A DNA stretch of 52,624 nucleotides from a virus. The notes under the pieces are model-generated. The model was not told the origin of the DNA. It saw only the letters and a program-made list of their open reading frames with translations, and searched no databases. The stretch is taken from the IMG/VR virus record IMGVR_UViG_3300045738_000739, positions 1-52,624 of that record; one strand, 5' to 3'. This document shows, in pieces, positions 10,701 to 52,488 of this stretch. How positions within the stretch are numbered: position 1 is the stretch's first letter; every line of letters begins with the position of its first letter. Position numbers and translations under genes: made by a program.

Positions 10701-10837
10701 TCGTAGTCGCCCGTCACACACATCGCCTGAAGAACTTCACGAGTTTCCGAACGACAATTGGCCTGGACTGCCGTGAAGTCCGGCAAATCGATCCGCTCGT
10801 TGGGGTGAACCTTTACTAAGTCTTTCTTGCCAGCCAT
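7736..10837 (-). CDS. Large tail-tip / fibre structural protein
   Basis: The protein has 1,033 residues and is rich in Gly, Thr, Asn, Pro and aromatic residues typical of beta-structured virion proteins. There is no signal peptide or enzyme motif. It starts with a short charged N-terminus (MAGKKDLVKVHPNERIDLPD) that could attach it to the baseplate. A middle part has beta-sandwich-like stretches, and the C-terminal half has many repeats of short beta strands, as in trimeric fibres. ATG 10837 overlaps the stop of the preceding baseplate-type gene (TAATG). As the last gene of the tail-tip block it is a good candidate for host attachment. The assignment is by context and composition, since I recognise no family. 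Confidence 0.7.
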   Translation of the reverse strand: MAGKKDLVKVHPNERIDLPDFTAVQANCRSETREVLQAMCVTGDYDRGEHTEAQIHTPTYDNTSPSGAEWELAFWHQYAATVTGQPGEENLGLIGVGTYFVDSLTGYDKCIFYSPFRVTGTLQSLTVVAGVGAVGVTDPDPNTVSEFGVVIGLEGDTSITIDTSGLAAGPYGIWVSAVWDDAAPGARVFWNNSTASELSQTVTTRQSASWNVHLKSIDLTSMDPQNANPAVAEDGWAMVGFAVWDGADWATSTISELTNSLFEGVLHNIKLAGQPLRPTNWASINWTPSPTEPEFVAKSRTWGDAGRLGVQGMAEPARSDRLIPLSDRSPDRLTWGVQSTAEFYGAIRRQLSDLIGGQSVQNGIQGVNNPAPGGDTVSDAVTIEGTIDLVNNFPAITNETLIVTIDAILSWTAQWTANNEADADALLASINAAYRNPADDHGVTATLGPNNGLVLTRTKVYNPAAILNFQMSDCGQLQVAPVAASTINTLLGLDESLREATYTKGWYSPMPTTSGYRDPLNPANIDIDGPIPGGTPVSMLILRDHIDHNYNPHGSTLHQDHFRVFNNTHLSYNEDFGGVPTKVTVGLSYPLSIQPREVNVWGNVMLLTAINTNFPVPQQGASDDRTGELQLGAMRATRHGTSGPNLAGETLDVLFKGGFNIEHDLFFNSPELVEHGGGVQTPGAAQVGPGDLHVRRNANIGWDSVVLSSGVPSPGSAAVDGVYIGRQQGVQVGAEPLVRLFGNVEIDSIPGGSPANLTAVGTGDNQSIIFNGALGRNMLANLSLTGNFNFLPGFDPHVIMFRSNTTGDPQGHRVRRFVGPAAFQSWNYQLINPSTVITPQLHLTLGYVQPQIVGGSSIPPFLLLHLNEYAGNAASGGGLFTQMPRVLLKAIRVYMGVGTALAPADLLPSLTLVSYQDVIVGENYPHATTTPTAFHGTGFVTIAQLTAGNSFDGLSGRVQNLNHVTTGLTMDNGFYNWDFDSGANPIPEDDQRAHEYGKLMLIVAAPAAQGGGGSNLAPFAGIELDFEVFAHHP

Positions 10838-31478: not shown

Positions 31479-31488
31479 CGTCTTCCTC

Positions 31489-31869
31489 CTAGCCCAATCG
31501 CTCTGGGCTCGCCTGGTGACTGCCGCCTTCTGGGCCACGACGACAGCCGTAAATCGGTTGTGCCGCGAACTCTGCAAGCAGGGTCGTCCACTCTTCGGCT
31601 GGCCTGTACTGGTTAGTGTTCACACCCTTCGACTTGCAAAAGGCCGCGAACGCATCGCCGCCTTTTGGGAACAGGTCCGACTTGTTGCCAGCATGGGATG
31701 CCGTGATCTTTGGCCCGCCTGTCGAGGCTGCCTTTTTGGTCCCCGTGACGCCGACTCCAGTCGAAGAATCACGTCCTCGCAGGATCGGGGCTGCTACAGC
31801 CGAACTCGACCCAGAATCAGAGGCGACAATTGCCGATTTGGTGGCGGGGGCTCGTCTTTTCCTTGCCAT
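31489..31869 (-). CDS. Small basic head/tail-connector region protein
   Basis: The protein has 126 residues. The first 55 are basic and Ser/Thr/Gly/Ala-rich (probably disordered), and the rest has helical elements with a Cys pair (FAAFCKSKG and PIYGCRRG). ATG 31869 has GAGGAG upstream. It precedes the sheath gene by ten bases and follows a 129-base gap. No function is recognised. Confidence 0.55.
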   Translation of the reverse strand: MARKRRAPATKSAIVASDSGSSSAVAAPILRGRDSSTGVGVTGTKKAASTGGPKITASHAGNKSDLFPKGGDAFAAFCKSKGVNTNQYRPAEEWTTLLAEFAAQPIYGCRRGPEGGSHQASPERLG

Positions 31870-37216: not shown

Positions 37217-38740
37217 TTACGCGAACGCACCCGTTTCGAGGTTGCCGATGTTGGTGTAGATGCCGTTCTTGTTTGGAGCCATGATCTGCAACGCTAAATA
37301 CAAGACCTGCATCCAACGTATGCTCGTGTCGATGGTTGCCAGTGGGATCTTGGTAAACGGCGCGAGTTGTTTTATCTTGATGACATCGCTGGTTTGCGTG
37401 AGCATGTACGCCTTGTTCGTTCCCGGTAGGAAACGATTCATGTCAGTTCGCGCCGTGTCTTCGCTTCCCGGCTGTACCGGAATCTTGAAGATCAAGCGTG
37501 CCGTCGAGATGTCCGCGCCAGCGACGGTGCGATAAACCTCGTAGTACGTTGCTGCGTTAGCACCGCCGAACGACGAATCGCGAATCGTGAAATCGACCAC
37601 GTTGTCCGTAGCCGTAACGGTCGCGGCTGCGGCTGCATCGACGGGTGCCGTCTTACCGTGACGGTTGCACGCAACCACACGGTACTCGTACACACCGACT
37701 TCGCTAGTCGTGAAGAACGCGACCTCGCCGGGATTCGCATTGTTGAACGCGCGAGCAGCCGGATCGGACTGCCATGACGGCACACCCGGAATTGCTCCAC
37801 CACCGATGGCTCCGACAGCCGGAAGACCGGAAGTCGGAATGAAGATGTCGCTGTTCAGTGAGATGTCGCCGAACGGAGTAGCGATCCCCTTGATCGCGAT
37901 GCCAGCCAGCCCATTCTTGGGAGCGGGCAGGTCGTAACGCTCTTTCGGGTACAGGATCTTGCTCAGATCCTTCATGGGTGCCGGCGGCAACCACAAGTCG
38001 GAAGGAGCACCGTAGTTTGGCTCGGAGATCAAACGCTCGGTCATGTCAGCAATGTGATCCTCTGAGAGAGGAGCACCACGCATGTCGATCACGTTGTCCG
38101 TCGCATAGCCGCTGTACTGACCGTCTGCCTGACGGACGTTACCGAAGCTGTGTACGAGGGTCTTTTCCAAGCCGTCGAACTGGATACCTACGAGGTCTTC
38201 GTCGCCATCGAAAAGCGAACGCTCCAATTGTCGTAGCAGGAACAGCGTTCCGTTCACGGTCTCGCGAGCGACGACATCGCCGTGTGCGGCTTTGAGCAAG
38301 CTCATGACATGGGTCACGCGCCGCGTAACGCCCATGAACTTGATCCGCGTGTAGTTACGACGGTAAGTGCTGTCGTCCTCGGTCGGCAGTTCGCCTTCCG
38401 CCATGAACGACGCAACACCGGAGCCGTAACCGAGAAGTTGGTTGAACTCCTCGACGGTATTGTATGCGCTATCCTTGTACAGCGCCTTCCAGAATTTGAC
38501 GTCGCTCGCGCGATACGTGACGTTGAACAGCGTCGCGTCGAGACTCTCGACACGGAGCGGGAAACCTTCACCAGCGGCAACAGCCGGGGCGTTGATGTCC
38601 GCGCCAGCCGTCAGTGCCTTATTCAGCTCACTGACATCAGTTGCAGATGCGGTGCCGCCGATGAGTCCACTTTCTGGCGTTCCCATCGAGGCATTCGCAA
38701 GACCTTCGTAATCTCGCCATGAAACAAATTCACCAGCCAT
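37217..38740 (-). CDS. Major capsid protein with fibronectin-like insertion
   Basis: The protein has 507 residues. It follows the protease and scaffold genes, and a region with RVTHVMSLLKAAHGD and long helical elements is consistent with the HK97 fold. The C-terminal part (about 445-507) has the closing strand and the helix of the P-domain. About residues 345-425 contain a FN3/Ig-like pattern (VGVYEYRVVACNRHGKTAP, then ATYYEVYRTV), likely an externally exposed insertion domain. ATG 38740 has AAGGAG upstream. It is larger than typical (about 300-400 residues) because of this insertion. No maturation cleavage site is certain. Confidence 0.8.
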   Translation of the reverse strand: MAGEFVSWRDYEGLANASMGTPESGLIGGTASATDVSELNKALTAGADINAPAVAAGEGFPLRVESLDATLFNVTYRASDVKFWKALYKDSAYNTVEEFNQLLGYGSGVASFMAEGELPTEDDSTYRRNYTRIKFMGVTRRVTHVMSLLKAAHGDVVARETVNGTLFLLRQLERSLFDGDEDLVGIQFDGLEKTLVHSFGNVRQADGQYSGYATDNVIDMRGAPLSEDHIADMTERLISEPNYGAPSDLWLPPAPMKDLSKILYPKERYDLPAPKNGLAGIAIKGIATPFGDISLNSDIFIPTSGLPAVGAIGGGAIPGVPSWQSDPAARAFNNANPGEVAFFTTSEVGVYEYRVVACNRHGKTAPVDAAAAATVTATDNVVDFTIRDSSFGGANAATYYEVYRTVAGADISTARLIFKIPVQPGSEDTARTDMNRFLPGTNKAYMLTQTSDVIKIKQLAPFTKIPLATIDTSIRWMQVLYLALQIMAPNKNGIYTNIGNLETGAFA

Positions 38741-38789: not shown

Positions 38790-39821
38790 TCAGGATGCTG
38801 CGCCTACCTGTCGGATTGCAGCCATCACGTTTTGAGGGATGTTTCCAGTTTGCTCGAACAATGCCGTTGCATGCGTGATGCGATCCATCGCAGCGTCGTC
38901 AGTCTGCTCACTCGCGTGAATCATGAGAGTCCGAAGACCACTCTTGATGTCACCTTTAGTCAGGTCATCGTTGCTTTCACCGATCACAGACTTCGCGAGC
39001 TGACGCGAAACGACTTGACCAGTCGAAGTTTGAATTGCGCGTCGCGGAGCCGGCGAACCTTCGACGGTCTCGACACGATCGCCCAGACCCTTGATGATTC
39101 CGTCCTGCTCGGCGATCACGTTGCACAGACCTTTCAGCAGAGAGCCCTGCGCCTTCAGCAGCTCGCGCGTTGCGCGACCGTCGCGACACACCTCAGTCTC
39201 GACCGCATCCATACGCTGGTCGATGCCACCGACAAGCGACTTCAGAAAGTCGCTAGCGTCCACGAGGTTCGACGTGTCTTCGTCTTCTCCGAGAACGTCC
39301 GCAACACTCTTGCTCAGAGCCTCGCTATTGTCGTCTTCGTCTTCGTCAGCCCAGAGGCGTCCCAGCTCTTGCCGTTCGCTCTTGGAAATGGTGCCCGAAT
39401 CGAGCCTCGCCTGGAGAAAGGACTCCCGGCTATTGCCGCTTTCCGACAGTGCCTCTTCGACGGCTGTGTACGCTTCGACAGACTTCATCAAATCTGACAC
39501 GGATACGTCGCCCGACTTCTTCGCCTTCTTCTTCTTCTCCATGTCTTCACCTTCTTCTTCCGACTCGTCGTCGTCGTCCGTGTCTTCCTCTTCGTCGTCG
39601 TCGTCGGGGGAATTGTCGCCTTCTTCGACGGGCAGCGCTTTGAAAGTGTCCTCGTCCAGAAGTTCGTCGTCACCGCCCTTTTCGAGCATGATCTCTGAGT
39701 ATGATTTGTACGTCAGATCCGCTGGGCGCATTCCGCGCGCCAGCACTGACAACGCCCGACCTGCTGGGGTGAGCCCGCCTTCGGGATCCGGCTTTCCGAG
39801 TTTCTGACTTGCTGCTGCCAT
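38790..39821 (-). CDS. Acidic scaffold-like protein
   Basis: The protein has 343 residues. An acidic Asp/Glu run with a Lys cluster (about 75-105) is followed by a long helical region with repeated charged heptads (about 105-240). Between the prohead protease and major capsid genes, such a protein is the classic internal scaffold removed by the protease. The stop of the protease gene lies two bases before the GGGAG-led start. Exact domains are not recognisable. Confidence 0.65.
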   Translation of the reverse strand: MAAASQKLGKPDPEGGLTPAGRALSVLARGMRPADLTYKSYSEIMLEKGGDDELLDEDTFKALPVEEGDNSPDDDDEEEDTDDDDESEEEGEDMEKKKKAKKSGDVSVSDLMKSVEAYTAVEEALSESGNSRESFLQARLDSGTISKSERQELGRLWADEDEDDNSEALSKSVADVLGEDEDTSNLVDASDFLKSLVGGIDQRMDAVETEVCRDGRATRELLKAQGSLLKGLCNVIAEQDGIIKGLGDRVETVEGSPAPRRAIQTSTGQVVSRQLAKSVIGESNDDLTKGDIKSGLRTLMIHASEQTDDAAMDRITHATALFEQTGNIPQNVMAAIRQVGAAS

Positions 39822-39823
39822 CG

Positions 39824-40807
39824 TTATCTCCCGCTGTGGCTGGCCCGGTCCACGATCAGTTCGACCTGTTCAGCCGACAATTGAGGTTTCATGGAGCCGA
39901 CAATAAGTCGAGCCTCAGATTTTGTCATCTCCATTTCGACTGGTTCCTTACTGAACTCTGCCATCGCATCGGCCCAATGGTGGGCGTAGTCAATTGTCGT
40001 CATGACTTCAGGCGTAGCCCGCACTCTGGCCGAATTGTCGCCTTTCGTCAAGTGCGGGTTTTTGCCGGCCACACCGCCTTGATTCGGCTGACCGCCATCT
40101 TCGGACGGAACTGCGCTCAGAAACGAGAGCCCGAACTCTTCTGCGATGGCTTTCTTCTTCTTCTTGCGTTTCTTCGGGGTCTTCTTTTGGTCGTACTGAG
40201 AACCGTCCAGTGATTCTGTTCGTAGCGCGAAACCGCTATCGGTCGCGCCTGCTTCGCTGCCGACCGTATGCCCAGCCGACAATGCCTTGGCAAGCGCAAT
40301 CATCTCGGTCGAGGTATTCACCGGGCAGTGCGTGATCGCCACGTTGCGAACTTCGGCGGCGACAATACGCGAATTGTCGTCTTTGTCGCGACGAAGCACC
40401 TTCCCCTCGATGCTGAAGCCAAGCCGTCGCTCTCCTCCAGTTTTCTGGAGTGCGGCGCACAAGTCGTAAACACGGCGACCTTCGTCGGTGTTCAGCAAAT
40501 AACCCTCTGTCCACCAGCCCTTTTTGTCCGCACGGCGGCCATTTGGCAGCATTGCGCCCTTGGTCACTTGATACGCAGCAGTCGGATAGCCCAGGACATC
40601 AACAGTCTTCTGCCCGTGGTTGTCGTTGAACCAGCCATGCGCCAGGAACGGGCTAAAGTCGAGACCGTCTTGGACGACAACCTCTTGCTGGCGATCGAGG
40701 TCTTGCGTGCTGACGACTCCCCCAACGCGCATCGAACAACCGTCTTCAGCTTCAGACTTCTCCCAAACGCTTAGGGGGATGTGGAATTTGAAAGCTCGGT
40801 CAGACAC
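39824..40807 (-). CDS. Prohead protease
   Basis: The protein has 327 residues, starting with GTG 40807 (GAGG seven bases upstream). The fold follows the HK97-type prohead protease pattern: a catalytic His in NDNHGQK (His about 64) and the Ser in RLGFSIEGK (Ser about 132). The later AITHCPVN strand (about 157-164) also fits. After about residue 175 there is a basic Lys-rich segment (KKTPKKRKKKKK) and an acidic helical tail; many such enzymes are fused to a scaffold-like tail. It is followed by the separate acidic scaffold-like protein, then the capsid gene. It cleaves scaffold during head maturation. Confidence 0.83.
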   Translation of the reverse strand: MSDRAFKFHIPLSVWEKSEAEDGCSMRVGGVVSTQDLDRQQEVVVQDGLDFSPFLAHGWFNDNHGQKTVDVLGYPTAAYQVTKGAMLPNGRRADKKGWWTEGYLLNTDEGRRVYDLCAALQKTGGERRLGFSIEGKVLRRDKDDNSRIVAAEVRNVAITHCPVNTSTEMIALAKALSAGHTVGSEAGATDSGFALRTESLDGSQYDQKKTPKKRKKKKKAIAEEFGLSFLSAVPSEDGGQPNQGGVAGKNPHLTKGDNSARVRATPEVMTTIDYAHHWADAMAEFSKEPVEMEMTKSEARLIVGSMKPQLSAEQVELIVDRASHSGR

Positions 40808-41130: not shown

Positions 41131-41468
41131 CAGTAAACCTGAAGCCCCAGCACACCCGCAGCCGAAGCTACCCGCGAACCCATGTGGCAGCGGTGAACGG
41201 AGCACGCCTTGGCGACTCCACGAAGCACCCTCTGTAGCCCGTCAGAGCCGTGGTGGCGCATGATGTACGCGCAGGTTGACTGGTGCTCCAGCCAGTCAAC
41301 CAGCCAGTCCAGACGGTTGGAGTCCCCTTCCTCGTAGAGCCGGTCGAATGCCGAGATGTTGGGCAGGGGTAGATCGACCTCGCCGGGCAGCCCGGTCGGT
41401 CCAGCTGACCAGAGAACGTGCTCCAAGCGTAGCCCTCTTGGAAGCTCAAACTGTTTGCTGTGTGGCAT
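41130..41468 (-). CDS. Small unknown protein
   Basis: The protein has 112 residues from ATG 41468, six bases after AAAGGAG (the nearer in-frame ATG 41474 is too close to that site). It has His-rich segments (IMRHHGSDG, VHRCHMG) and two cysteines near the C-terminal third. It overlaps the last bases of the giant protein gene and couples to the zinc-ribbon gene. No function is assigned. Confidence 0.5.
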   Translation of the reverse strand: MPHSKQFELPRGLRLEHVLWSAGPTGLPGEVDLPLPNISAFDRLYEEGDSNRLDWLVDWLEHQSTCAYIMRHHGSDGLQRVLRGVAKACSVHRCHMGSRVASAAGVLGLQVY

Positions 41469-44400
41469 CGTCATCTCCTTTCATGAGTTTGCGAGCAAAG
41501 TCGAAAACTAGGCGAATCGCCTTGGTGATAACAGTGCTGCTAGCCTTGGACAGCGACAGTGAATCGACCTGCTCAAAATGGCCCGCGACCGAGAAGTCTG
41601 TACCTTCCTGCACGTTTCGGATGATCTGTTCAAAGCTGATCTTGCGGCTTCTGCCCATCGCTCGGGTGCGCCGCTCAGTCGCAACGGGGTGCTCTTTCTC
41701 GTAGCCGGTAAAAACGCGCTGTGGGTCCGGTTTCTCACCATCCACCTTTTTCGGATGGTGAACATGAACCTGGCCAACATTCCCAGATGTGCCCAGCACT
41801 CGCACGTTGACGAGGTATTTCTTCGTTTTAAGCACCGCTCGATCTTCGGGAGTCAGCATGTCGATGAGGCGATTCTGGACATCGTCGTTGGAAACGATGC
41901 CACCCATCGGGCCAGCCTTCATAGCCTGCTCAACTTCGTCCCGCTTATCCTCCATCCAAGTAAAAATCTCGTCAGCTCGAATCGCGAGGTACACCGCAGC
42001 AGCATCGTGCGAACCCGTGCCCGTCGCGGGGTCGTGCTGAACGAAGCCTGCATCCATGACAGCCTTTCGCTCCGCTTCGGAGAGTTGGTAAATCGTGTCG
42101 CCGACTGTCACCGCTTTGCCGTCTAGCGCGTCACGCACTGCGCTCTCAGCATTGACGCAGTGCATAGGCCCGCCACGCGCTAGCGAGGCGTAAGTGCCTG
42201 ACTCAATCTTTTCGGCGAGGTCTACCATCTCCCCCTGCGGAATCGAGATCACTGTTCCGGTACCGCCAGGGATTTTCCGTTTATTCAGCTCATTTAAGAG
42301 CTGATACTGGGTGTTTGCGCCAAGCGTGGCCGCCGTCGCGCACTTGTTGGCCAATAACGTCCACTCGGCAGCAAGCCGGCGTATCTGGGAGCGCGATTCG
42401 CTGGACGGTGGGGCTCCAGGGCAAAGGCGAGTGCGATAATCCTCAGACACCTCAAGACAGCGTGTGCGGATCAACGACAAGGCACCCTCGAACTGCATAC
42501 TTTTAAGCTGCTCGCCTTCGCGTCCAGCGATAGGCCCATTCAAAGTGAGCTTGCCGATATGGCCGACTGGGCGGTCACGCGGACCCGCCTCAAAGATGGC
42601 AGCTTCCATATTTCTGATCTTGCTGAATGGCCCGCTACCGTCGTACTTGGGCCGACCCTTGTCGTCGTACTCCTGAACCATGAACGGGATCTTCTTGCCG
42701 TTCTCGTCCAACTTCGGTTGATTCTGGTCGTCGGTCTCCCAAACAGATTCACCCTTGTGATTCTTCTTCTGAGACATGATGGCGCGACCCAACAGCTTAC
42801 CTTTGACGGCTGCCGGCAGCATCCGCGCGCACCGGGTCGTCCGCTGATCCTCTGCCATCGGGCTCGCCAACGTGTCGTACTTGAGCATTTCGGTGGCATT
42901 ACCGAGATTCATTCCAACCTGCGCAGCATCGGAACAAACGATGACCTCGCAGTTGTTGAAAACCGTCGTCTGCTTAGACGACAATACAGGCGTGTCAGTC
43001 GCACCCTGTTTTGCCAATGCGGTGTACTCTTCTTTCAACGATTGAAGTTCTCTCTTCGCACCCTTCTGGTCGTCGTCAGCCATCTTGTTCGGATCCCCAA
43101 TCTTGGCGATTCGACTCAAAATAGCAGCAGAGCGTTTCGTCCCGTTAAAAGCACGCTTCTCTGTCGTACCATCGCCTTTGGAAACCAAAACGAACGACTC
43201 CGGTGCTTCGATCTTGAACTGCGCGAAAATCTGACTGCGCTGCTCTGCCGTCCACTGGCTAAGCGCAACGTCGTCGGGAGGCTTGCGGTCACCTGGATAG
43301 AGCATCCAGTTCGATTCGTATTCTTTGCCCTTATCCCCAAACACACCCTTCGCGTCCTTCCACGTACTCGCGGGACGGGGCTCAGTGCATTTATGGACAA
43401 AGAGAGAGACCTCGGAATCGCGCTGTAGTGCATCTTTGACCTTCTGGAAGATCGCGACATTCAGCTCACGATCGCCTGTATAGGTCGCGCCAATATAGGT
43501 GACAAAATACTTGTCGTTGGGACTACCATTCTTGGTCGTCTTGTCCTCGGGATCGTAATGCGGCGAACCTTCGAGAACTTCGTTCACATCCCGAAAGCCC
43601 ATCTGCCGCATCTTCGCTTCCATTGTGCGGCACGAGTCGAGAATGCTGTTACCGAACATAACTAGCTGACGCGCGCCATCCGGTCCTGCCTTCCCACCCT
43701 GGCTATAGAACCGGGTGACGTGATCCTCCAGCTCATCCGCCTTCGCGTTCTGGTGGGTACACGCTATGTCGAACTTGTTGCGCTCAGCACGCATGCCGGG
43801 GTCAAAGATGCTTTTGACGAGTGCCGAAACATCCTTTTCCTTGACGATCAAAACCTCGCCGGTCCCAAGCACGCGAACACCCGCTTGACCCACTGGTGCT
43901 GCGATGTCGGGATCATACCGAAACTGCGGAGGCACCCAGTTCTTACGCGCCTCTTTCGCAGCCTCGCGCTCTTCGGGTTGCAAACCGCGTGGCACTCCCG
44001 GCGGAACGATACCCGCAGCCTTCATCGCGCTAGCCGACAATTGGACTAGAGCACCCGACCTGACTGCCGCGAAACCTTCCTTGCTCAGATCCTTGGGCCT
44101 GTGATTCTTCTCATCCCAGTCTTTCGGCATGAAGACCACATGCTGCGATCCTTTGGGATCCGAAATCCAATTGTCGTCGGTCGTGAGCTGAACCGGATCG
44201 CCGCTGTGGTCGGCTGACCACGACTGCTCAATGATCGTAGGCGAAGGGTGGATCTGGAGCAGCGCTCGACCTTCCTCCAGCGAGATCCCAAGACGGTTGC
44301 AGACGTTCTGGAGACCTTCCTCCCAATCCCCGTCAGGCGGCTCAAGCTGAAGCTCCGTGCGCAGCGCACGCTGAAAGTGCAGCGCTCGGTCGATCTCATC

Positions 44401-47400
44401 GACCCGTGCAGCCCGCTGCCCCAGCAAAGCCTTCTGGGCACTGCCAGAGGACCGCCTGATGCGCTCGTTGATCTCGTCCAGCCAGTTGATCCCGTGACCG
44501 CGAAAACGCACACCCAGCTCACCCGCGTCGGGGTTCTCGATCTTCTTGCCTAGTGGCGCATCCCAGCCAGCATCGACCATGCGCTTCAAAGCTACCTTCG
44601 TCTGTGCTGCCGTGGGCTTGCCTGTGCCCTTGTAACCCGGCATCCCGGTGCCGATCCACTTGCCCGCAAGCTCAGCATACGGCTGCCCCAGAACTTCCTG
44701 GCAGTACAGATCATAGACGGCAGCCTGCTCAGGTCCGATCTCCTCGATGCGCTTAAACTTCCCTTTCGCAGTGCCTCTGGACTTGTCCATCAGTTCCGAA
44801 GGTCGGAACGTGGTGAAGTCAACCCGTGAGTTTGATTCACCACCCGACTTGTTAAAAGTGACCGTCGTCACCCTAATAAACTTCTCGGGATTGCCCGCTT
44901 TATATCCAATACAATTGGTGATCGCCTTGGCTGCCTTCGTCAGCTTACGTGTCTCCTCGTCACTGATGCGGTCGATCTCTTCCGGGTCAAGTCCAGCTCC
45001 ACCCGTATCCGAACCTAGTGACGCCATATACAGGTTGAACAGCGTTTCCTGGATGCCCTTCATCTCTGCGAACTTGCTCTCCTCTGTACGGACACCGGGG
45101 AGAACCTTGCCTCGCACATCCTTCGGTAAAGCTATGTCCATCCACTTCGCGAGAATGGCCGCAAGCTCACCCATCTTTTCCGCCTTAACCGACAGCTTTG
45201 CACCCTTTCCAGATTCGCCAAGCTGCCCAGGAACGGGCGTCTCCTCCAAATACTCGTCAATGAATTTCTTGCTGGTCATGTCGGGCCATTCTTTGCCCTT
45301 CGACAATAACCGCACATACTCAACGAAGTCGGTCGGTGATGTCGTCATCGGAGTGCCGGTCAACAACATCAGCATCTTCATGTCGTCATTCCACTCACGC
45401 ACTACACGATTTCTCTCAGCCGTTTCATTCTTGATGCCCATGTGAACCTCGTCCACGATCAGCCCATCGAATCCACACTGCTTGAGTTTGGCCGCATGCT
45501 TCGTAAAATACTCAGGACCGACGACAACCAGATCGCCGCGCGAACTATCTTTCATCGCAAGAAATTCATCTGCTGAAATATCGCCTGACCCGCGACCGAC
45601 CACTTGCGCTCCCTCATCGAAATCGGCACATGCTTTACGCCACTGCTCAACGGTGTTGAGCGGAGCGACAACCAGCACACGCTTCGGATTACCCGGATTG
45701 CGCCGCGTATTGTCGAAAGGATTATTCTCGTACCAATCTTTGATGTCCTCCGCTGTCATCTTGGCTTTCTCAGCCGATGAGAGCTTCGCGCGAGCAGGAC
45801 GTTCCATCATCATTTTCGCGGCGACAATTGCGGAGACAGTCTTGCCCGTGCCCATATAATGAGCAGCAAGAACTCGACCATCGTTGTCTATCATTTTCTG
45901 AAGCAGCTTTTGCTGATGGCCGCCCAACGTGAACTCTTCGCCCGATGGCAAACGCTTGTTGAGCCCTGCGCCCCAATTGTCGGCGAGATTTGCGGGATCG
46001 ATCTCAGCCAACGACATCTCGTGCGCGTCAGCCGACATCGACTTCTCAGCATCCACAAGATGATCAATGCGCTGCTTCAGATAAGTGTCCACCTCGCCAG
46101 TCAACGAAAGCCCACCAAGCATCTTCCGCAACTCGGGGAAGCGGTCAGCTGGAACCTCGACCGCAGTGATCTCACCCCTCAAACCTGGAACTAGCTCTGG
46201 GCCTTGATCGGCAGCAACCGCTCCTTGGATGGCGAGGATGGAATCGGCGGACACACGTCCGTTCTTCGGTAGCTTGACCCGCAAACTCTTGTGCATCGTC
46301 GCGCCCGTTCTCGGATCGACATCGTGGTGCATGTAGACCAGCACCTCATTTTCGAGAGCTTCTGGCGTGTGTGAGCCCTTTGGCCAGCTCGTTGAAGAAC
46401 GAACTGCGTCCTCACCGTAGCGAATAAAAGTACGACCCGGCGTGCCGCCGCCGACTTCGCCTTTGAAGAGGTAAGCAGTCGGATACGCTTTCGCCTTCTC
46501 CGATTTGTACGTCGATCGGTACGCCGCCATCGCGGGGACGAAGTGGGCATTGAACCACTCTCGATACACGTCGCCGCCATTGTACCACTCGGGAAGAAGA
46601 CCCTGTTTGATGTAGCCCTTCTCAGCCTTGGTGAGCTTCTGCCCATCGGGAACCGGGTGCGACGGCGTCAAGTTTGGGATGTAGTTCCCAGCCAAATCCT
46701 TGGGCATGCGATCCCAACCAGGCTTTGGCGGCGCTTCACCGGCTTTCTTACCCATGATGATCCGCTCAAGACGAGCGACAACCGTCTTGTCCTCAATGAC
46801 CGGATCTGTTTTAGCAGTGGCGTCGATCAGAACACGCGAACCCTTTGTAGGCAGCGCACCCTTTGGCGGCTTTGCAGGCGGGTTGAGTGTGATCTGCTGC
46901 GCACCGATGACAGCGCGTGCGCCTTCACGAAAAGCGAAGATCGGATCGTCCTTCAGCAAGTCGTCGATGCGCGGCTCATCTTTGCCAAGACGACTCGCCC
47001 ATTCCTTGCCCATGATCTTGGGCTGGCCGGAACCATCGTACTCGACCTGCATGTGGTAGACGTGTTCGCAGTCGCCCTTCTTCCCCATCTTCCATTTGCC
47101 GTTAGCCTTCTGAATGCGCTCACGGTCAGTGCGAACAGAGATCCAAGTAGTGCGCTTTTCAGCAGCCGCCTTCTTGCAGAAACGACGCAAATCGTCGGCA
47201 GAGTTGATCGACTCACCATACGGAGTAAGCAACGCTGACCACATTGGATCGGAGACTCGGAAGCCTGTCCCCCTGGGATCGCGATGGCAGTCAATTGTCG
47301 TCGTCGTTCCATCCGGGTTGTCATTCACAAAACGCTTGGAATCGAAAATGGGCTCGACCTTGCCGGTCACATGGTTGACAGCCGTCACCACATCAGCACG

Positions 47401-49629
47401 GGTGAAATGTCCCTTGGCGTTACGCGCCATTTTGATCTTGATTCCAGGCTGCTTTTTGCGCAGCTTGGTCAGCGCAAGACGCTTCTGCTCGTCTGTCTGC
47501 GCGCGTTGCCACGCGCGCATCTCGGACTCGCCCGCCGTGTCCCAACGGTCGTAAGAGAACGTGCCAGACCTCTGACGGAACTCGCGACAGGTAAGCTCGT
47601 GCGGGCGCATAAGCGCAGGCTTTGGCGGTTTGCCGTTAGCGTCGTTGTAAGCCGCCTCCATCTTAGCCAGCTCATCGGCAGTCGCCTTACGTTCTGGCTT
47701 CTTGAGCGTCCACGCTTTGCCGCTCTTGATCGCAACAACACCCTTCTCAAGTGCTTTTTCGAGTAAGGCTTGACCGGCAGTAGTCGTATCGCGCAGAAGG
47801 AATTTTGGACCCATCTTGTCCACCAAGGCTTGGACCTTGGCTGCCTTGGCTGCGGACACTTTAGAACCCGACTTCTTACTCTTGAGACCTGTCGGGAGAT
47901 CGAGAATGTCTTGCAGCGTAACGTCGAGCTTTTTGCCTTTGACAGTAACCTGCGCAATCTTCGCTTTGGGGTCGTCGAACTGGTCCTGCATCAGATGCCA
48001 GTAGATCAAATCCCGATCAAGAGGCTGACGGTTTTCGTCAAATACCTCTTTGATGTCCTCTGCCCTGATCACTGCGTTATTGGACGACTGACTCGGATCA
48101 GACGGATCCCAGTTAGGCTTTCCCATGTCCCCATCAACCGACTGTTTGCCATAACGGAAATAAATCGTCCTACCCCGATAAGACATCTCGAAGAATCGAT
48201 CATGCAGCCGCTTCGTCTGACGACCGATTTTGTCTTCGTCAGGCGGATCCGCGACGTACTGAGTCTCGCTAGTCTGCGGGGGACGCGGAACAGCCTGGAT
48301 CAGCTTGGCCACTGGCTTGACTTCTTTTCCGGCGAACCAGGCCAACCTCTCATCCTCGAAATCCATCTCGTCCAACCCGTCCAACTTGTCGAGTCTCTTT
48401 TGGACGGCAGCCTTGTCGGCTGGGCTCCGCGCTGTATCAAGCTCAGCCTTTAGCTTCTCGATCCCAACCTTGTCGGTCGTGAGCGGAAACATCTCATCGG
48501 CACCGATGAATTGTCGCATCCACTCATACGTCTTCGGGCAGCTCACGGACATCTGCTTCGGGTACAGGATCGAACAGGAAAAGCTCTCAGCGAACCGCTC
48601 CTTCATGTGGACATCACGACCCTTTTGAGTGATCTCAGCGTAAGCCGTGATTCCCGGCTCTTTGCCCTTACCCACGAGGTTCTTCTCGAAGAACGAAACC
48701 CAGTCCTTCCAAAGAGGCCCGTCATAATCCGGCCCCATATCGTTCGGACCTCGCGCACCCATCTTGTTGTGGATCGCGTGCGCCATCTCATGGACCAGAA
48801 TATCTACAGAAGATGTGCCCGCATCGAACTGAGGAAGATGCTCCCCTCTCGGAGCGATCCTAGAACCACCCCAGGCGGGCTGTTTTACCCCTTTCCCCGG
48901 CGTCTTCCCCGACCAAGATCCGTCTGCGCCAGTCAGGTCGAGTCCCAATACGATCTTTGAACCCTGAGTCCCCCAGCCTCCAGCCATGCAATAAGCCGAA
49001 GCAGAACCACGACGGAGATAAGCGTCTTCGTCCTTGGTCGTCACCAGAAGCTCGGAAATAGAGCCGGAAAAATGCTTGCGTATATTCGACGGGATCTGCC
49101 GGAACCCTAAGTCGAGAATCCTGAGAGCGTGGATCTTCTGCCCGTACAATTCGTCGGGCTCACCTCCCAAGTCCGCATAATGTTCCTCGACCGCATCCTT
49201 GAAAACCGACTGCGCTACAGGCGACAATACAATCTCGGGCGGCTTGTCCCACGCTAGAAACTCGGTGACCAGATCCACGGTCAAATCTTTTAACTCGGTA
49301 CGCGCCGCACGCAGCTCCGGGTGATCGCCCTTAAACTCGGAGCGCAGACCACCCTCATGCTCTTCGACAGGAGCCTGCGGGGCTTTGCCTTGCAGCTTCT
49401 TAACCTGCTTCTTCTTGCGCTTGATCTTGCGCGCCTGCGACTCCAAGAACTGCTTCCGACCCTCTTCGTTGTCGTAGTAGTATTTCCACCGGAGCTTGCC
49501 CTGCGACATCGTGCGGACTCGACGCCAGTATTTGTGCCCTGCTTGCGCGCCTCGTGCGAAGCCAACGCCCGCTTTCTCAAGCTCGTCGGGTGTGTACGTG
49601 GGATGATCCAAATTAAGCCCGAACTTCAT
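41446..49629 (-). CDS. Giant polyvalent-type protein: zincin peptidase plus split SNF2 helicase
   Basis: The protein has 2,727 residues from ATG 49629, after GAGGAGG; the stop of the preceding gene overlaps (ATGA). An N-terminal part with a basic patch is followed at about residue 280 by the zinc-peptidase motif VHEMAHAIHNKM, with a further Glu in ERFAESFS about 60 residues later, as in gluzincins. A SNF2-like helicase begins near residue 1235: GTGKT (motif I, about 1256), DEVH (motif II, about 1395), LLTGTPM (motif III, about 1423). The second lobe has motif V/VI-like CSDAAQVGMNLG and DQRTTRCAR (about 2230-2265), so roughly 800 residues separate the lobe motifs. Such multi-domain giants packaged in virions are known as polyvalent proteins; DarB of P1 is a simpler relative. 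The position between portal-side genes and head genes fits delivery with the DNA, perhaps for defence evasion or DNA remodelling. Confidence 0.75.
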   Translation of the reverse strand: MKFGLNLDHPTYTPDELEKAGVGFARGAQAGHKYWRRVRTMSQGKLRWKYYYDNEEGRKQFLESQARKIKRKKKQVKKLQGKAPQAPVEEHEGGLRSEFKGDHPELRAARTELKDLTVDLVTEFLAWDKPPEIVLSPVAQSVFKDAVEEHYADLGGEPDELYGQKIHALRILDLGFRQIPSNIRKHFSGSISELLVTTKDEDAYLRRGSASAYCMAGGWGTQGSKIVLGLDLTGADGSWSGKTPGKGVKQPAWGGSRIAPRGEHLPQFDAGTSSVDILVHEMAHAIHNKMGARGPNDMGPDYDGPLWKDWVSFFEKNLVGKGKEPGITAYAEITQKGRDVHMKERFAESFSCSILYPKQMSVSCPKTYEWMRQFIGADEMFPLTTDKVGIEKLKAELDTARSPADKAAVQKRLDKLDGLDEMDFEDERLAWFAGKEVKPVAKLIQAVPRPPQTSETQYVADPPDEDKIGRQTKRLHDRFFEMSYRGRTIYFRYGKQSVDGDMGKPNWDPSDPSQSSNNAVIRAEDIKEVFDENRQPLDRDLIYWHLMQDQFDDPKAKIAQVTVKGKKLDVTLQDILDLPTGLKSKKSGSKVSAAKAAKVQALVDKMGPKFLLRDTTTAGQALLEKALEKGVVAIKSGKAWTLKKPERKATADELAKMEAAYNDANGKPPKPALMRPHELTCREFRQRSGTFSYDRWDTAGESEMRAWQRAQTDEQKRLALTKLRKKQPGIKIKMARNAKGHFTRADVVTAVNHVTGKVEPIFDSKRFVNDNPDGTTTTIDCHRDPRGTGFRVSDPMWSALLTPYGESINSADDLRRFCKKAAAEKRTTWISVRTDRERIQKANGKWKMGKKGDCEHVYHMQVEYDGSGQPKIMGKEWASRLGKDEPRIDDLLKDDPIFAFREGARAVIGAQQITLNPPAKPPKGALPTKGSRVLIDATAKTDPVIEDKTVVARLERIIMGKKAGEAPPKPGWDRMPKDLAGNYIPNLTPSHPVPDGQKLTKAEKGYIKQGLLPEWYNGGDVYREWFNAHFVPAMAAYRSTYKSEKAKAYPTAYLFKGEVGGGTPGRTFIRYGEDAVRSSTSWPKGSHTPEALENEVLVYMHHDVDPRTGATMHKSLRVKLPKNGRVSADSILAIQGAVAADQGPELVPGLRGEITAVEVPADRFPELRKMLGGLSLTGEVDTYLKQRIDHLVDAEKSMSADAHEMSLAEIDPANLADNWGAGLNKRLPSGEEFTLGGHQQKLLQKMIDNDGRVLAAHYMGTGKTVSAIVAAKMMMERPARAKLSSAEKAKMTAEDIKDWYENNPFDNTRRNPGNPKRVLVVAPLNTVEQWRKACADFDEGAQVVGRGSGDISADEFLAMKDSSRGDLVVVGPEYFTKHAAKLKQCGFDGLIVDEVHMGIKNETAERNRVVREWNDDMKMLMLLTGTPMTTSPTDFVEYVRLLSKGKEWPDMTSKKFIDEYLEETPVPGQLGESGKGAKLSVKAEKMGELAAILAKWMDIALPKDVRGKVLPGVRTEESKFAEMKGIQETLFNLYMASLGSDTGGAGLDPEEIDRISDEETRKLTKAAKAITNCIGYKAGNPEKFIRVTTVTFNKSGGESNSRVDFTTFRPSELMDKSRGTAKGKFKRIEEIGPEQAAVYDLYCQEVLGQPYAELAGKWIGTGMPGYKGTGKPTAAQTKVALKRMVDAGWDAPLGKKIENPDAGELGVRFRGHGINWLDEINERIRRSSGSAQKALLGQRAARVDEIDRALHFQRALRTELQLEPPDGDWEEGLQNVCNRLGISLEEGRALLQIHPSPTIIEQSWSADHSGDPVQLTTDDNWISDPKGSQHVVFMPKDWDEKNHRPKDLSKEGFAAVRSGALVQLSASAMKAAGIVPPGVPRGLQPEEREAAKEARKNWVPPQFRYDPDIAAPVGQAGVRVLGTGEVLIVKEKDVSALVKSIFDPGMRAERNKFDIACTHQNAKADELEDHVTRFYSQGGKAGPDGARQLVMFGNSILDSCRTMEAKMRQMGFRDVNEVLEGSPHYDPEDKTTKNGSPNDKYFVTYIGATYTGDRELNVAIFQKVKDALQRDSEVSLFVHKCTEPRPASTWKDAKGVFGDKGKEYESNWMLYPGDRKPPDDVALSQWTAEQRSQIFAQFKIEAPESFVLVSKGDGTTEKRAFNGTKRSAAILSRIAKIGDPNKMADDDQKGAKRELQSLKEEYTALAKQGATDTPVLSSKQTTVFNNCEVIVCSDAAQVGMNLGNATEMLKYDTLASPMAEDQRTTRCARMLPAAVKGKLLGRAIMSQKKNHKGESVWETDDQNQPKLDENGKKIPFMVQEYDDKGRPKYDGSGPFSKIRNMEAAIFEAGPRDRPVGHIGKLTLNGPIAGREGEQLKSMQFEGALSLIRTRCLEVSEDYRTRLCPGAPPSSESRSQIRRLAAEWTLLANKCATAATLGANTQYQLLNELNKRKIPGGTGTVISIPQGEMVDLAEKIESGTYASLARGGPMHCVNAESAVRDALDGKAVTVGDTIYQLSEAERKAVMDAGFVQHDPATGTGSHDAAAVYLAIRADEIFTWMEDKRDEVEQAMKAGPMGGIVSNDDVQNRLIDMLTPEDRAVLKTKKYLVNVRVLGTSGNVGQVHVHHPKKVDGEKPDPQRVFTGYEKEHPVATERRTRAMGRSRKISFEQIIRNVQEGTDFSVAGHFEQVDSLSLSKASSTVITKAIRLVFDFARKLMKGDDDATQQTV

Positions 49630-49970
49630 GCCACGCCTCCTCGCCCAGTTGGGCAAACGCGCGTCAACGGAAACTTGCGAATTGCAGCGCCGAAGTGCTT
49701 GGGGTCGTCAGCCGTCACCACACCAGACATCATCACGTCCATGTTTGGGTCGTCACTCTCCCCCGCCCACCGTGTCCACACCGGCTGATCCATGAAGGTC
49801 GCTAGCTCAGCCCAAAACGAACTGTCGGCTACTTTGGCATCGAACTCGACAACACGGAACCCATGGTCAGCGCTCTCGTCGCGCTCCAGCGAACATGCCC
49901 AGCGGAACTGCGGACGATGCGCGCGGTAGTACCTGTGTAGGTGATAAATGTCTTTCTCTGCATCAGCCAT
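49626..49970 (-). CDS. Small unknown protein
   Basis: The protein has 114 residues from ATG 49970, which has AAGGAG six bases upstream; the longer open frame lacks one. It is Trp- and Asp-rich with an acidic middle and a loop ending in CPTG. It overlaps both neighbours by a few bases, tying it to the giant protein and the sigma-like gene. No family is recognised. Confidence 0.5.
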   Translation of the reverse strand: MADAEKDIYHLHRYYRAHRPQFRWACSLERDESADHGFRVVEFDAKVADSSFWAELATFMDQPVWTRWAGESDDPNMDVMMSGVVTADDPKHFGAAIRKFPLTRVCPTGRGGVA

Positions 49971-52488
49971 TGTCATCTCCTTGTGACGCTGCTTCTTCTT
50001 TGGTGGGCACTCTGCGCGCCGCACCGGAAAGTTCTGCTCGATAGCGCTGCGCTGCTTTGCGGCCCGCCGCCGAAGCCGGATCAGGCATCGGAACCCGACC
50101 TGTAAATTGCTGGAACCGTGCCGGCGACATCACCTTCGACTCGCCGCCAAACGACGGACCTCTCCACGTCGTCGGATCCGATCCGCGTTTCAGCAGGGCT
50201 TGCATGTAGCCCCGCATCACCTCGTCCGCGTACAACCAGCTCGACTCTGGATCTGAGCCGGTCGGAATGGTCTCCACTTCGTCACTGCCAACGGACCTCG
50301 TTCTGCCGTATCGTAGAAATTCTGACAGCCGCTCTCGATCACGTTGCTCGTGATAAAGCTGACGAACCTCACGCTTCTCGGCAGCCGACGCTTTGCCTGA
50401 CTTTTCCCTCTTCAGAATCTTGCCAACGCGATCACCCCGCCCTGCTCTCACACCAGCCGCGTAAATCCTGACCCGCTCGTGTTCGAGCCCTTCAACATGT
50501 CCTGTCAGCACTGCAATCCTAGACGACAATTGATCCTGATTGTCGTCCTTCGCAGTATCACGCTTGGAACGCAATTGTTCAATCTGCTTTTTCGCGCTTG
50601 CAATAGCTTGTTTGTCAGCACCAAATCGAGCAAACAACTCGCGATAGCTGGGACCGGGCGACTCCTCGGTACCGAAGAACTGGCCCGGAGCACCAGCCTC
50701 GATCCACTTCTGCGCATGCAGTCGCGCCTCCGCACCCTTCTCGTGCGCAACACGCTGAAACATCTCGGTCGCCGCGCTGCGTGCCTGGGCTCCCAGACCC
50801 CTCTTGTGCCGCGCCGAATGCCCCTTTTTGGCGATGCCTAGCCGCTCAGCCAGCTCCTCGTTCGACATCACGACGTTGCCGCTCAATTGTCGCCTACCTT
50901 CGCCGGGTTCAGCGTCCGGTGTGAGGCCAAACAGCAACTCGATGGCTCGCGCATTCTGATGGCCGATCTTCCGCTCGTCGCTTCCCGGCTTCCCCACCTG
51001 TTCCATGTCGCTCAGAATGTCATCGATCTCACGACGCAGATGGAGCTGCGTCCCAACTGGAAAATCGGGATCAGTGTGCGGACCCGCCACCTCGTGCGGG
51101 TTTTGATTCATCCACTCAGAGTCGAGCACCCGGTGACCATCGAGCACCCGGTCGAGCGTGCTGATGAGTCGATCCTTGCCCGGCAGTTCCTTGCCCAGCT
51201 CCTTGCCGTCTGGAGCCCTAACCTGCCACCCGTCGAACGGAACTTCTTCAGTCGCCTGATCGACAACCTTGCCTACGTCGTTGTGGTAGACACCAAGTGT
51301 CGCCGCTCGTCCGGTGAAGGTGTCACGCTTCTGGAGTCTCCACGCTCTCGCGATTGCCTTCTTGGTGGGCTCCTCATCGGTCTTGCGACTGGCTCGGTGC
51401 TTGGCCGCGATGTAGCCGTGCATCAGGCGCATCGTCTGGTGCGGCACAGAGGGACCACCGCCGCCCAGCGCAGACCGTGCCGCATACGACGCATAGGTGT
51501 TGACGTAATCTTGGGCGATCATGGCAAACGGCTTGCCGCCTGAATAGCCACGCAAAGCCATCAAGAATCCAAGATTCGCACCGCTCTTGATCTCCTCGAA
51601 GTCGGGCGACTCGTTGCCATCGGAATCACGCATGTCGATTGCGTGGCTCGCGGCAACTTTACGCGATGCAGAGTGCAGCAGCCCTTTGAACTCCTGCAAC
51701 ATCCCGGCTTGGTCAGCCTTCGGAATGAAGATCCCTTGAGACTTCTTCGCGCGCAGCCCGCGCTCGCGATCCACGAAAGTCGCCAACGGATAATGACCGT
51801 TCTCGACCTTGTGCAAGAACGTACCAGCCTTGGCTCTCGAATCCGCGAACACCTTCGACCGCTCGGCTTCTTCGGAGACAGGATGATCTCCAGAACCCTG
51901 CTTTATGGGCTCTGTAATCGCCCTTCCTGGGGGTAGCTTTCCACCGGGTGTGCCGGCCCGTTTCTTCGGCGGTGGACGCCTGGGGGCTGTCCTACGGGGC
52001 TTCACGGGGGCTTTTGGCTTAGCCTTGCCCTTCATCGGCTGGAGTTTTGACGATCTGACCCGGATAGGCTCGCCAGCCGCCCGACCGTGCTCGGGATCGA
52101 ACGTGGTGACATGCGTGTACTTTCCGTCGTCGTCGGCTGCATCCGGTGTCCAAACGAACAGACCATGCCGACCTTGGATGCTGACGAACTGCCCCGCCTT
52201 GATGTCCGAGATCCCGGTCTTGCCGTAGTCGGCTTCCCAGTCGTGATGATCCCCGTGCTTGTGCTCTGTCGGGTACCAGTAGATCCAGCCTCGGCCCTTG
52301 CGCTTGCGGAACCCCCTATGCTTTGAGTTGGGGATCGAGCTGTAGCCGGCTGGTGGTTTGGTCACGCCGGCTTTGCTCAAGCTATTGTCGGCGACAATTG
52401 CTAGGGTCAGCTTCTTCGGTTTCGCCTTTCGAGCAGACAAGGGTGTTGCAAAAGCTGCCTGTATTTCTCGCACATGTGAAGGGTTCAT
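49963..52488 (-). CDS. Large protein with sigma-70-like regions and KOW/SH3-like N-terminus
   Basis: The protein has 841 residues. About residues 48-115 show a basic SH3/KOW-like pattern (SSIPNSKHRGFRKRKGRGWIYWYP, then GQFVSIQGRHGLFVW). A basic Pro/Lys linker follows (about 152-180). Residues about 300-385 resemble sigma-70 region 2/3 (LGFLMALRGY, YVNTYASYAAR, VPHQTMRLM, PTKKAIARAW). Residues about 511-570 resemble region 4 (ARAIELLFGLTPDAE, then SNEELAERLGIAKKGHSARHKRGL). A long helical C-terminal part follows (about 575-841) with possible coiled coil. The pattern suggests a virion- or early-expressed transcription factor, but the match is by eye and the motif spacing is loose. ATG 52488 has GGAGG ten bases upstream. 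Confidence 0.55.
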   Translation of the reverse strand: MNPSHVREIQAAFATPLSARKAKPKKLTLAIVADNSLSKAGVTKPPAGYSSIPNSKHRGFRKRKGRGWIYWYPTEHKHGDHHDWEADYGKTGISDIKAGQFVSIQGRHGLFVWTPDAADDDGKYTHVTTFDPEHGRAAGEPIRVRSSKLQPMKGKAKPKAPVKPRRTAPRRPPPKKRAGTPGGKLPPGRAITEPIKQGSGDHPVSEEAERSKVFADSRAKAGTFLHKVENGHYPLATFVDRERGLRAKKSQGIFIPKADQAGMLQEFKGLLHSASRKVAASHAIDMRDSDGNESPDFEEIKSGANLGFLMALRGYSGGKPFAMIAQDYVNTYASYAARSALGGGGPSVPHQTMRLMHGYIAAKHRASRKTDEEPTKKAIARAWRLQKRDTFTGRAATLGVYHNDVGKVVDQATEEVPFDGWQVRAPDGKELGKELPGKDRLISTLDRVLDGHRVLDSEWMNQNPHEVAGPHTDPDFPVGTQLHLRREIDDILSDMEQVGKPGSDERKIGHQNARAIELLFGLTPDAEPGEGRRQLSGNVVMSNEELAERLGIAKKGHSARHKRGLGAQARSAATEMFQRVAHEKGAEARLHAQKWIEAGAPGQFFGTEESPGPSYRELFARFGADKQAIASAKKQIEQLRSKRDTAKDDNQDQLSSRIAVLTGHVEGLEHERVRIYAAGVRAGRGDRVGKILKREKSGKASAAEKREVRQLYHEQRDRERLSEFLRYGRTRSVGSDEVETIPTGSDPESSWLYADEVMRGYMQALLKRGSDPTTWRGPSFGGESKVMSPARFQQFTGRVPMPDPASAAGRKAAQRYRAELSGAARRVPTKEEAASQGDDNG
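50522..50547. repeat. Motif pair facing inward in the sigma-like gene
   Basis: GACGACAAT and ATTGTCGTC are exact complements separated by 8 bases, inside the 841-residue coding gene. It shows a second spacing variant of the paired motif (another, at 40358-40381, has a 6-base spacer and one mismatch). Confidence 0.6.
52384..52399. repeat. Motif pair with one-base spacer, same geometry as 15153
   Basis: ATTGTCG, one G, then CGACAATT form an inverted pair inside the coding gene. The encoded stretch is AIVADNS. This reproduces the 15153-15169 layout with a different centre base, which suggests a preferred pair geometry. Confidence 0.6.

What the first reader, a model, noticed from the sequence alone, without database searches (positions are those of the whole stretch)
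41446..49629. 2,727-residue protein joining a zinc peptidase motif to a widely split SNF2 helicase
The zincin HExxH motif and a downstream Glu are near the N-terminus. SNF2 motifs I-III are near 1256-1423 and motifs V/VI near 2230-2265, separated by a very long insert. This fits the polyvalent-protein idea of multi-domain cargo delivered with the DNA to counter host defence. The exact domain set looks unusual, and other domains probably remain unrecognised between 400-1230 and 1450-2000.
Basis: partly seen in the sequence, partly recalled or inferred. Interest (0 to 1): 0.58.

Follow-up and report, generated by a model that had tools for sequence, protein, structure and literature searches.

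The report
Giant phage protein: protease plus DNA motor
A tailed bacterial virus carries, inside its head-building genes, a very large protein that joins a zinc-protease fold to a DNA-pulling motor; it is probably packed into the virus head and injected with the DNA, and next to it sits another likely cargo protein that resembles the bacterial factor which starts transcription.

Summary
In detail: one intact 2,727-residue ORF, on the MINUS strand (ATG 49629, stop at 41446), with one HExxH plus a downstream Glu and SNF2 motifs I-III and V/VI at the stated positions. It is not chance. Eleven other distinct metagenomic viruses carry it. HExxH is kept in 11 of 12 and the zinc Glu in 12 of 12. The SNF2 motifs are invariant in 7 aligned copies; an eighth has a likely intein in its Walker A. 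A model of residues 1-1200 gives a zincin fold nearest M34/PPEP/MtfA peptidases.

The gene lies in a ~14 kb block between portal and prohead protease, where related SPO1 has 76 bp. The block also encodes a MuF-like protein and a neighbour with InPase (relatives), SAM lyase (one relative) and a sigma70-like core. This is the setting of head-packaged "polyvalent" cargo (Iyer 2017); zincin+SNF2 combinations are already in print. Packaging and injection remain inferred.

Differences from known SNF2 cargo (P1 DarB): no methylase motif, a peptidase on the same chain, a long conserved insert, a recurring hairpin-like module. The most distant relative keeps part of the peptidase domain but lost both zinc histidines. 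Verdict: new variant of a known kind.

The parts
41446..49629 (-). giant gene, 2,727 aa: zincin-like peptidase domain plus split SNF2-type ATPase
   Evidence: homologues in 11 other distinct viruses
49462..49560 (-). residues 24-56, N-terminal hairpin-like module HKYWRRVR...GKLRWKYYY, best conserved N-terminal stretch; candidate capsid-targeting tag
   Evidence: invariant columns H32 K33 Y34 R37 G44 Y50 Y52 in 12 of 12; two strands in the model at pLDDT about 50-68; also on an unrelated 710-aa protein next to portal in L033/L034
48496..49296 (-). residues 112-378, zincin-like metallopeptidase domain
   Evidence: model pLDDT mostly 70-89 with low stretches, chiefly 145-164 and 235-272; VIA Z 11.0/9.2/7.6 to M34, PPEP, MtfA folds; hhalign to E. 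coli MtfA 1.4e-5, next of 39 is 0.015; Peptidase_M90 in L008 7.5e-6
48778..48792 (-). HEMAH, residues 280-284
48586..48600 (-). ERFAE, residues 344-348 (E348 the likely zinc Glu)
   Evidence: E348 in 12 of 12, E344 in 11 of 12
45019..45918 (-). residues 1238-1537, SNF2 ATPase first half, motifs I-III
   Evidence: Pfam PF00176 E 1.1e-16; motif columns invariant in 7 of 7
43678..45018 (-). residues 1538-1984, conserved insert of unknown fold between the SNF2 halves
   Evidence: present in the aligned giants; residues 1540-1950 give no clear match to any of 39 test proteins
42820..42960 (-). residues 2224-2270, Helicase_C motifs V and VI
49626..50024 (-). small conserved gene, 132 aa as called; its stop overlaps the giant's start
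49963..52488 (-). 841-aa neighbour, family with sigma70-like core; several relatives carry an N-terminal InPase domain that this copy lacks
50830..51669 (-). residues about 274-553 of the neighbour: sigma70-like regions 2 to 4
   Evidence: hhalign: RpoD 9.2e-6, RpoS 2.2e-4, best of 37 others 0.049
52264..52359 (-). residues 44-75 of the neighbour: PPxGYxxIPxxKHxGFRK..GWxYWYP module
39824..40807 (-). head maturation protease
   Evidence: phrog_1028 E 2.3e-47
38790..39821 (-). head scaffolding protein
   Evidence: phrog_15087 E 1.1e-5
37217..38740 (-). major head protein, SPO1 gp6.1-like (33-35% identity)
   Evidence: phrog_752 E 2.2e-79

Best explanation
The gene encodes a head-packaged, injected cargo protein of the polyvalent kind. 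Inferred course: during prohead assembly the protein is recruited to the portal/MuF region through its conserved N-terminal hairpin-like module and enclosed; on infection it leaves with the DNA. In the cell the SNF2 module travels along the incoming double-stranded DNA using ATP and clears or blocks host proteins on it (restriction or other defence complexes, or host RNA polymerase). The zincin domain cuts either the giant itself, to free its parts, or a host protein. Shown: intact conserved gene, predicted zincin fold with zinc site, SNF2 motifs, position in a conserved block inside the head operon. Inferred: packaging, injection, enzyme activities, targets.
For: Zinc site kept in 11 of 12 distinct viruses. 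Zincin fold in the model, MtfA by profile, M90 at the edge of its cut-off. SNF2 by Pfam/PHROG, motifs invariant in 7 of 7. The giant is followed by prohead protease in 8 of 8 distinct loci that reach that far, and preceded by the 841-type neighbour in 11 of 11. 14,397 bp (L001) and 14,053 bp (L007) lie between portal and protease, where SPO1 has 76 bp. Cargo-type neighbours: InPase above cut-off in L001, L019, L032 and a SAM lyase in L019. MuF-like protein by weak profile match. Iyer 2017 (sections read) puts zincin MPTases, SNF2 ATPases and InPase in such proteins near late genes. P1 DarB, an SNF2-bearing virion protein, has its capsid signal in its first 30 residues (PMC9024508, abstract and passages).
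Against: No proteomics: packaging is not shown for any member. The methylase that nearly always accompanies SNF2 in polyvalent proteins is not detected (no [NDS]PP[YFW] in 5 of 5 giants tested; no Pfam MTase). The zincin does not match the MPTase-PolyVal Pfam model, nor P1 DdrB above background. The most distant relative, L032, lacks both zinc histidines, so peptidase activity is not indispensable. The packaging role of the hairpin is a guess.
Confidence: 0.68

Rival explanations
1. It is a head-assembly factor: the zincin helps process head proteins, and the SNF2 part has a role in packaging or DNA handling during assembly; it is not injected.
For: It lies directly upstream of prohead protease and scaffold in 8 of 8 loci that reach there; BFVD's top structural match is a minor capsid protein (E 8.6e-3, prob 0.99).
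Against: A dedicated prohead protease is already encoded; related SPO1 builds its head without the block; neighbours belong to injected-cargo families (InPase, SAM lyase).
Confidence: 0.15
2. The block jump-starts transcription: the neighbour acts as an injected sigma factor for host RNA polymerase and the giant's SNF2 motor, RapA-like, frees or remodels polymerase on the incoming DNA; defence evasion is secondary. (A version of the best explanation with another target, so the confidences overlap.)
For: Neighbour aligns in order with RpoD regions 2-4 (9.2e-6; next non-sigma 0.049). RapA is the best of 39 test proteins for motifs I-III (7e-6). Iyer 2017 section 33 names establishing transcription as the phage's first challenge.
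Against: Against the whole PDB the SNF2 part is nearer RAD5/RAD54-like chains (4.7e-8) than RapA (0.018), and NCBIfam/PADLOC put DpdE/DrmD first. Pfam sigma models give at best 0.055 and 0.2, each in 1 of 9 members; PF04542 found nothing in the window, L001 or L002.
Confidence: 0.25
3. The SNF2 part is a defence-type enzyme (DpdE/DrmD/BrxH relative) made late in infection to exclude other phages.
For: Best PADLOC and NCBIfam rows are DrmD/DpdE/BrxH helicases.
Against: All far below the families' NCBIfam cut-offs (29.8 bits against 500); no partner gene of those systems was seen in the window's family scans; the gene sits in the head operon.
Confidence: 0.05
4. Artefact: an assembly or frame fusion of separate genes.
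For: Very long ORF with two unrelated parts in a metagenomic contig.
Against: Eight distinct viruses have it as one uninterrupted ORF of 2,177-2,843 codons in the same place.
Confidence: 0.01

Closest known systems
Polyvalent proteins of phages (Iyer et al. 2017, PMC5512222)
   Same: Multidomain cargo next to late head genes; zincin and SNF2 are two of the commonest domains; a printed example (Acetonema longum protein) holds both; InPase only in phage-type proteins.
   Different: No methylase detected; the zincin matches M90/MtfA and M34/PPEP folds better than the Pfam MPTase-PolyVal model; sigma-like neighbour (the word sigma does not occur in that paper).
P1 DarB (antirestriction virion protein, record NC_005856)
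   Same: SNF2-type ATPase in a >2,000-aa protein encoded next to portal; N-terminal packaging signal in DarB, conserved N-terminal module here; weak similarity at motifs V/VI (BLAST pairwise E 0.003).
   Different: DarB has an adenine methylase N-terminal to the ATPase and, by what was read, no zincin on that chain; P1 carries its MPTase in DdrB (Iyer 2017).
M90 (MtfA), M34 (lethal-factor-like) and PPEP peptidases
   Same: Zincin core, HExxH then a Glu 48-81 residues on; fold match Z 7.6-11, MtfA profile match.
   Different: Part of a giant phage protein expected to act in bacteria; 10-17% identity in the structural alignments; substrate unknown.
SPO1-like myovirus head module (Herelleviridae)
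   Same: Portal, protease, scaffold, major head protein in the same order; major head protein 33-35%, portal (of L001) 35-38% identical in the best rows.
   Different: About 14 kb of extra genes between portal and protease.

Membership tests
Phage polyvalent protein | Several domains of unrelated biochemistry on one chain | tested here: met
   Zincin fold and SNF2 ATPase
Phage polyvalent protein | Encoded among late virion genes | tested here: met
   8 of 8 loci reaching there have prohead protease next; for SPO1 order
Phage polyvalent protein | Packaged and injected with DNA | not testable with these tools
   Needs virion proteomics and transfer assays
DarB-like methylase-SNF2 dyad | SWI2/SNF2-type ATPase | tested here: met
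   PF00176 1.1e-16, PF00271 5.6e-5; motifs invariant 7 of 7
DarB-like methylase-SNF2 dyad | Adenine MTase with NPP(Y/F) N-terminal to the ATPase | tested here: not met
   No [NDS]PP[YFW] in 5 of 5 giants; no MTase family in Pfam scans
Zincin-like metallopeptidase | HExxH with a Glu in the following helix, three-strand core | tested here: met
   11 of 12 and 12 of 12; strands 191-197, 212-215, 224-229 and helices 270-292, 342-355 in the model
MPTase-PolyVal (PF18818) | Match to the family model | tested here: not met
   0 of 3 records at E up to 10
Peptidase M90 / MtfA (PF06167) | Match at the curated cut-off | tested here: inconclusive
   L008 26.1 bits against cut-off 26.2; L019 E 0.17; the window itself not listed
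Sigma70 factor (neighbour gene) | Regions 2, 3 and 4 in order | tested here: inconclusive
   hhalign RpoD 9.2e-6 over 196 columns; Pfam models weak or absent

The most novel reading that the evidence does not exclude
The ~14 kb block is a self-contained entry kit of an uncultured branch of SPO1-like phages: a head-packaged sigma70-like factor (with InPase, sometimes SAM lyase) that points host RNA polymerase at phage promoters as the DNA enters, plus a protease-tethered SNF2 motor that clears the DNA, both marked for the capsid by short related hairpin-like modules that also sit between cargo domains. A virion-packaged sigma factor was not listed in the searches made.
Probability: 0.3. Interest if true: 0.78.

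Novelty: new variant of a known kind. Interest (0 to 1): 0.55.

Why it matters
If right, it adds a well-bounded family to the cargo that phages carry into cells, with a natural comparison built in: the same head module with (this branch) and without (SPO1) the cargo block. It suggests a packaging tag that could be tested directly, links an SNF2 motor to a possible injected sigma-like protein, and includes a relative whose peptidase domain has outlived its zinc site, which asks whether the domain has a second, structural job.

Tried and rejected
MPTase-PolyVal (PF18818) and Sigma70_r2 (PF04542) searched in the window record, L001 and L002: nothing. Single-sequence phmmer of the giant against the PDB: best E 0.66, unrelated. 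First structure job on the zincin with two sequences: mean pLDDT 39, not used. Foldseek with the second model: no match at E <= 0.001 in PDB or BFVD. Residues outside 112-378 were barely tested there, so nothing is said about the fold of 400-1230. The insert 1540-1950 and the C-terminus 2290-2727 clearly matched none of 39 test proteins; a motif IV candidate is by eye only. hhalign of the whole giant profile with P1 DarB: only motifs V/VI, probability 1.2. tblastn in 50,697 phage records: no match for the window's or L007's giant; L019's giant gave 24 records, the ten listed being helicase-region matches of 7-9% coverage. Two scans of bacterial/archaeal genomes found no relative. Papers: PMC5512222 outline, passages and sections 8, 14, 18, 23, 32, 33; PMC7824862 passages only; PMC9024508 passages only, including part of its abstract; others seen only in listings.

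Rows dropped before counts: loci of one contig fetched twice (L004, L009, L021, L031 with L001; L005 with L002; L011, L013, L028 with L007; L020 with L008; L029 with L019; L003 is the window itself), and near-identical viruses (L002 and L014 with L001; L015 with L016; L018 with L019). L033/L034 carry only the hairpin module and are not counted as giants. The structure model used 9 of the 12 distinct N-termini and residues 1-1200 only.
Full report
What is there. The stated interval holds one open frame on the minus strand, 49629 down to 41446, 2,727 residues, with ATG preceded by GAGGAGG and overlapping the stop of a small gene. The plus-strand reading is full of stops. The whole record is a 52,624-base viral contig. 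Its major head protein is 33-35% identical to SPO1-type phages, and it has sheath, baseplate, scaffold and prohead protease genes, so this is a fragment of a contractile-tailed phage related in its head to SPO1.

The SNF2 part. Pfam SNF2-rel_dom matches 1238-1537 (1.1e-16) and Helicase_C 2224-2270 (5.6e-5), with PHROG 62 'DNA helicase' at 1.2e-30. GTGKT, DE[VA]H, TGTP and the motif V/VI blocks SDAAQVG.N and QR.TR.AR are found in W, L001, L007 and L019, and their core columns are invariant in 7 of 7 aligned copies. L008, the eighth full copy, has an insert of about 164 residues inside its Walker A that begins with Cys and ends HN before Thr, and Pfam's Intein_splicing model matches it at 1e-5, below its cut-off: probably an intein in the ATP-binding loop. 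Which SNF2 group it belongs to is open. Of 39 test proteins RapA is best for motifs I-III (7e-6) and DarB second (0.0084). Against the PDB a RAD5 chain leads (4.7e-8) and RapA is at 0.018. NCBIfam and PADLOC list DpdE/DrmD/BrxH-type helicases, far below the NCBIfam cut-offs.

The peptidase part. HExxH alone would be weak evidence (124 of 2,000 shuffles). Across 12 distinct viruses H280 and H284 are kept in 11, E281 and E348 in 12, E344 in 11. A second structure job with 9 sequences gave mean pLDDT 60 over residues 1-1200, with most of the zincin domain at 70-89; the HExxH helix (270-292) and the E344/E348 helix (342-355) follow three strands. VIA-align gave Z 11.0 (184 residues, 3.9 A) to the peptidase domain of lethal factor, 9.2 to PPEP-1 and 7.6 to the Klebsiella protein 3khi, which I recall to be MtfA. 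Foldseek itself gave nothing at E <= 0.001. By profile, E. coli MtfA is the best of 39 test proteins (1.4e-5; next 0.015), and Pfam M90 is reached by L008 at 26.1 bits against a cut-off of 26.2. So the fold is that of zincins of the M90/M34 sort. The exception is L032, the most distant relative: the C-terminal half of the domain is recognisable (7e-12, for a search of that one protein) but both zinc histidines are replaced. There the domain has probably lost peptidase activity while keeping its place.

The setting. In every distinct locus that reaches far enough the order is the same: the 841-type neighbour before the giant in 11 of 11, prohead protease after it in 8 of 8. A MuF-like protein precedes the neighbour in all 10 distinct loci that reach it and a portal in all 8. 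The MuF assignment is weak by profile: phrog_8089 'head morphogenesis' 0.0035, Pfam Phage_Mu_F 1.5. In L001 14,397 bp and in L007 14,053 bp separate portal and protease (coordinates); in SPO1 the gap is 76 bp. So the giant is part of a block that this branch has and SPO1 lacks. Relatives were found only in viral metagenome contigs: none in two genome-collection scans and no whole-length relative among 50,697 phage records.

The neighbour. In several relatives it begins with an inorganic-pyrophosphatase domain (InPase, L001 3.6e-12, L019 1.8e-17, L032 1.3e-37; 5 of 9 members in one scan, the window not among them; [quoted passage not shown] In L019 it also has an S-adenosylmethionine lyase domain above cut-off (4.4e-9). 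The common core aligns, in order, with regions 2 to 4 of E. coli RpoD over 196 columns (9.2e-6; region borders recalled), RpoS second (2.2e-4), best of 37 other proteins 0.049. Pfam's own sigma models are weak (0.055 and 0.2, one member each of 9) or silent. I regard a sigma70-like fold as likely and a sigma function as possible.

Hairpin-like modules. A short segment (PPxGFxxIPxGKHGGYRK..GWxYWYP) occurs once in the neighbour of W and of the other relatives tested, three times in that of L019, where it precedes or separates domains, and once in an 823-aa protein upstream of the portal in L007. A related-looking segment (HKYWRRVR...GKLxWxYYY) is the best conserved N-terminal piece of the giants, invariant at seven positions in 12 of 12, and also occurs on a 710-aa protein encoded next to the portal in L033/L034. 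P1 DarB's capsid signal lies in its first 30 residues (PMC9024508, abstract and passages). A packaging tag is the natural guess; it is untested, and the kinship of the two segments with each other is by eye.

How it most likely works. Best supported: cargo enclosed in the head and injected, the SNF2 motor acting on incoming DNA, the zincin freeing parts of the giant or cutting a host protein. Against a simple 'it is DarB': the methylase that Iyer 2017 describes as nearly always present is not detected. Packaging, injection and all activities are inferred.

Known or new. Zincin plus SNF2 on one phage-derived chain is in print (Acetonema longum protein, Iyer 2017, passage), so the finding is a new variant of a known kind. 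What adds interest is the conserved block as a whole, its sigma-like partner, the repeated module and the relative with a lost zinc site. The literature searches were made; none listed a virion-packaged sigma factor, but the library lacks most subscription papers.

Noticed in passing
L008:6606-15137 (+), residues about 1282-1445 of its giant: Probable mini-intein splitting the Walker A motif of the SNF2 domain (Cys start, HN end, Thr after); Intein_splicing 1e-5, below cut-off.
   Followed up: partly
49963-52488 (-): Neighbour protein with sigma70-like core; the window's copy lacks the InPase domain that several relatives have.
   Followed up: partly
L019:6647-11602 (+), residues 805-923: S-adenosylmethionine lyase domain (4.4e-9) in the neighbour homologue, between two copies of the hairpin-like module; an anti-restriction enzyme in other phages (recalled).
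   Followed up: partly
L032:6870-13403 (+), residues about 240-320: Zincin domain of the giant keeps its C-terminal part and the zinc Glu but has lost both histidines of HExxH; SNF2 motifs intact.
   Followed up: yes
L033:1795-3927 and L034:462-2594 (+): 710-aa protein encoded after the portal that shares only the HKYxRRVR hairpin-like module with the giants.
   Followed up: partly
L014:222-4577 and L001:1-1731 (+): Up to 1,451-aa protein upstream of portal with repeated segments of the kind VIGHTGSGKPIYASHAG and DNPDLVKGGKEGS; no convincing family found.
   Followed up: no
28704-31577 (-): Tail sheath gene of 957 aa whose sheath match starts at residue 649, leaving a very long unexplained N-terminal part.
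   Followed up: no
10837-12813 (-): Baseplate-type protein with a Reelin_subrepeat-B match (4.6e-6, 26.9 bits against cut-off 27).
   Followed up: no
5508-7052 (-): A second, separate helicase (phrog_16, 1.9e-50) near DnaB-like helicase and primase genes, so the giant is not the phage's only helicase-type motor.
   Followed up: no
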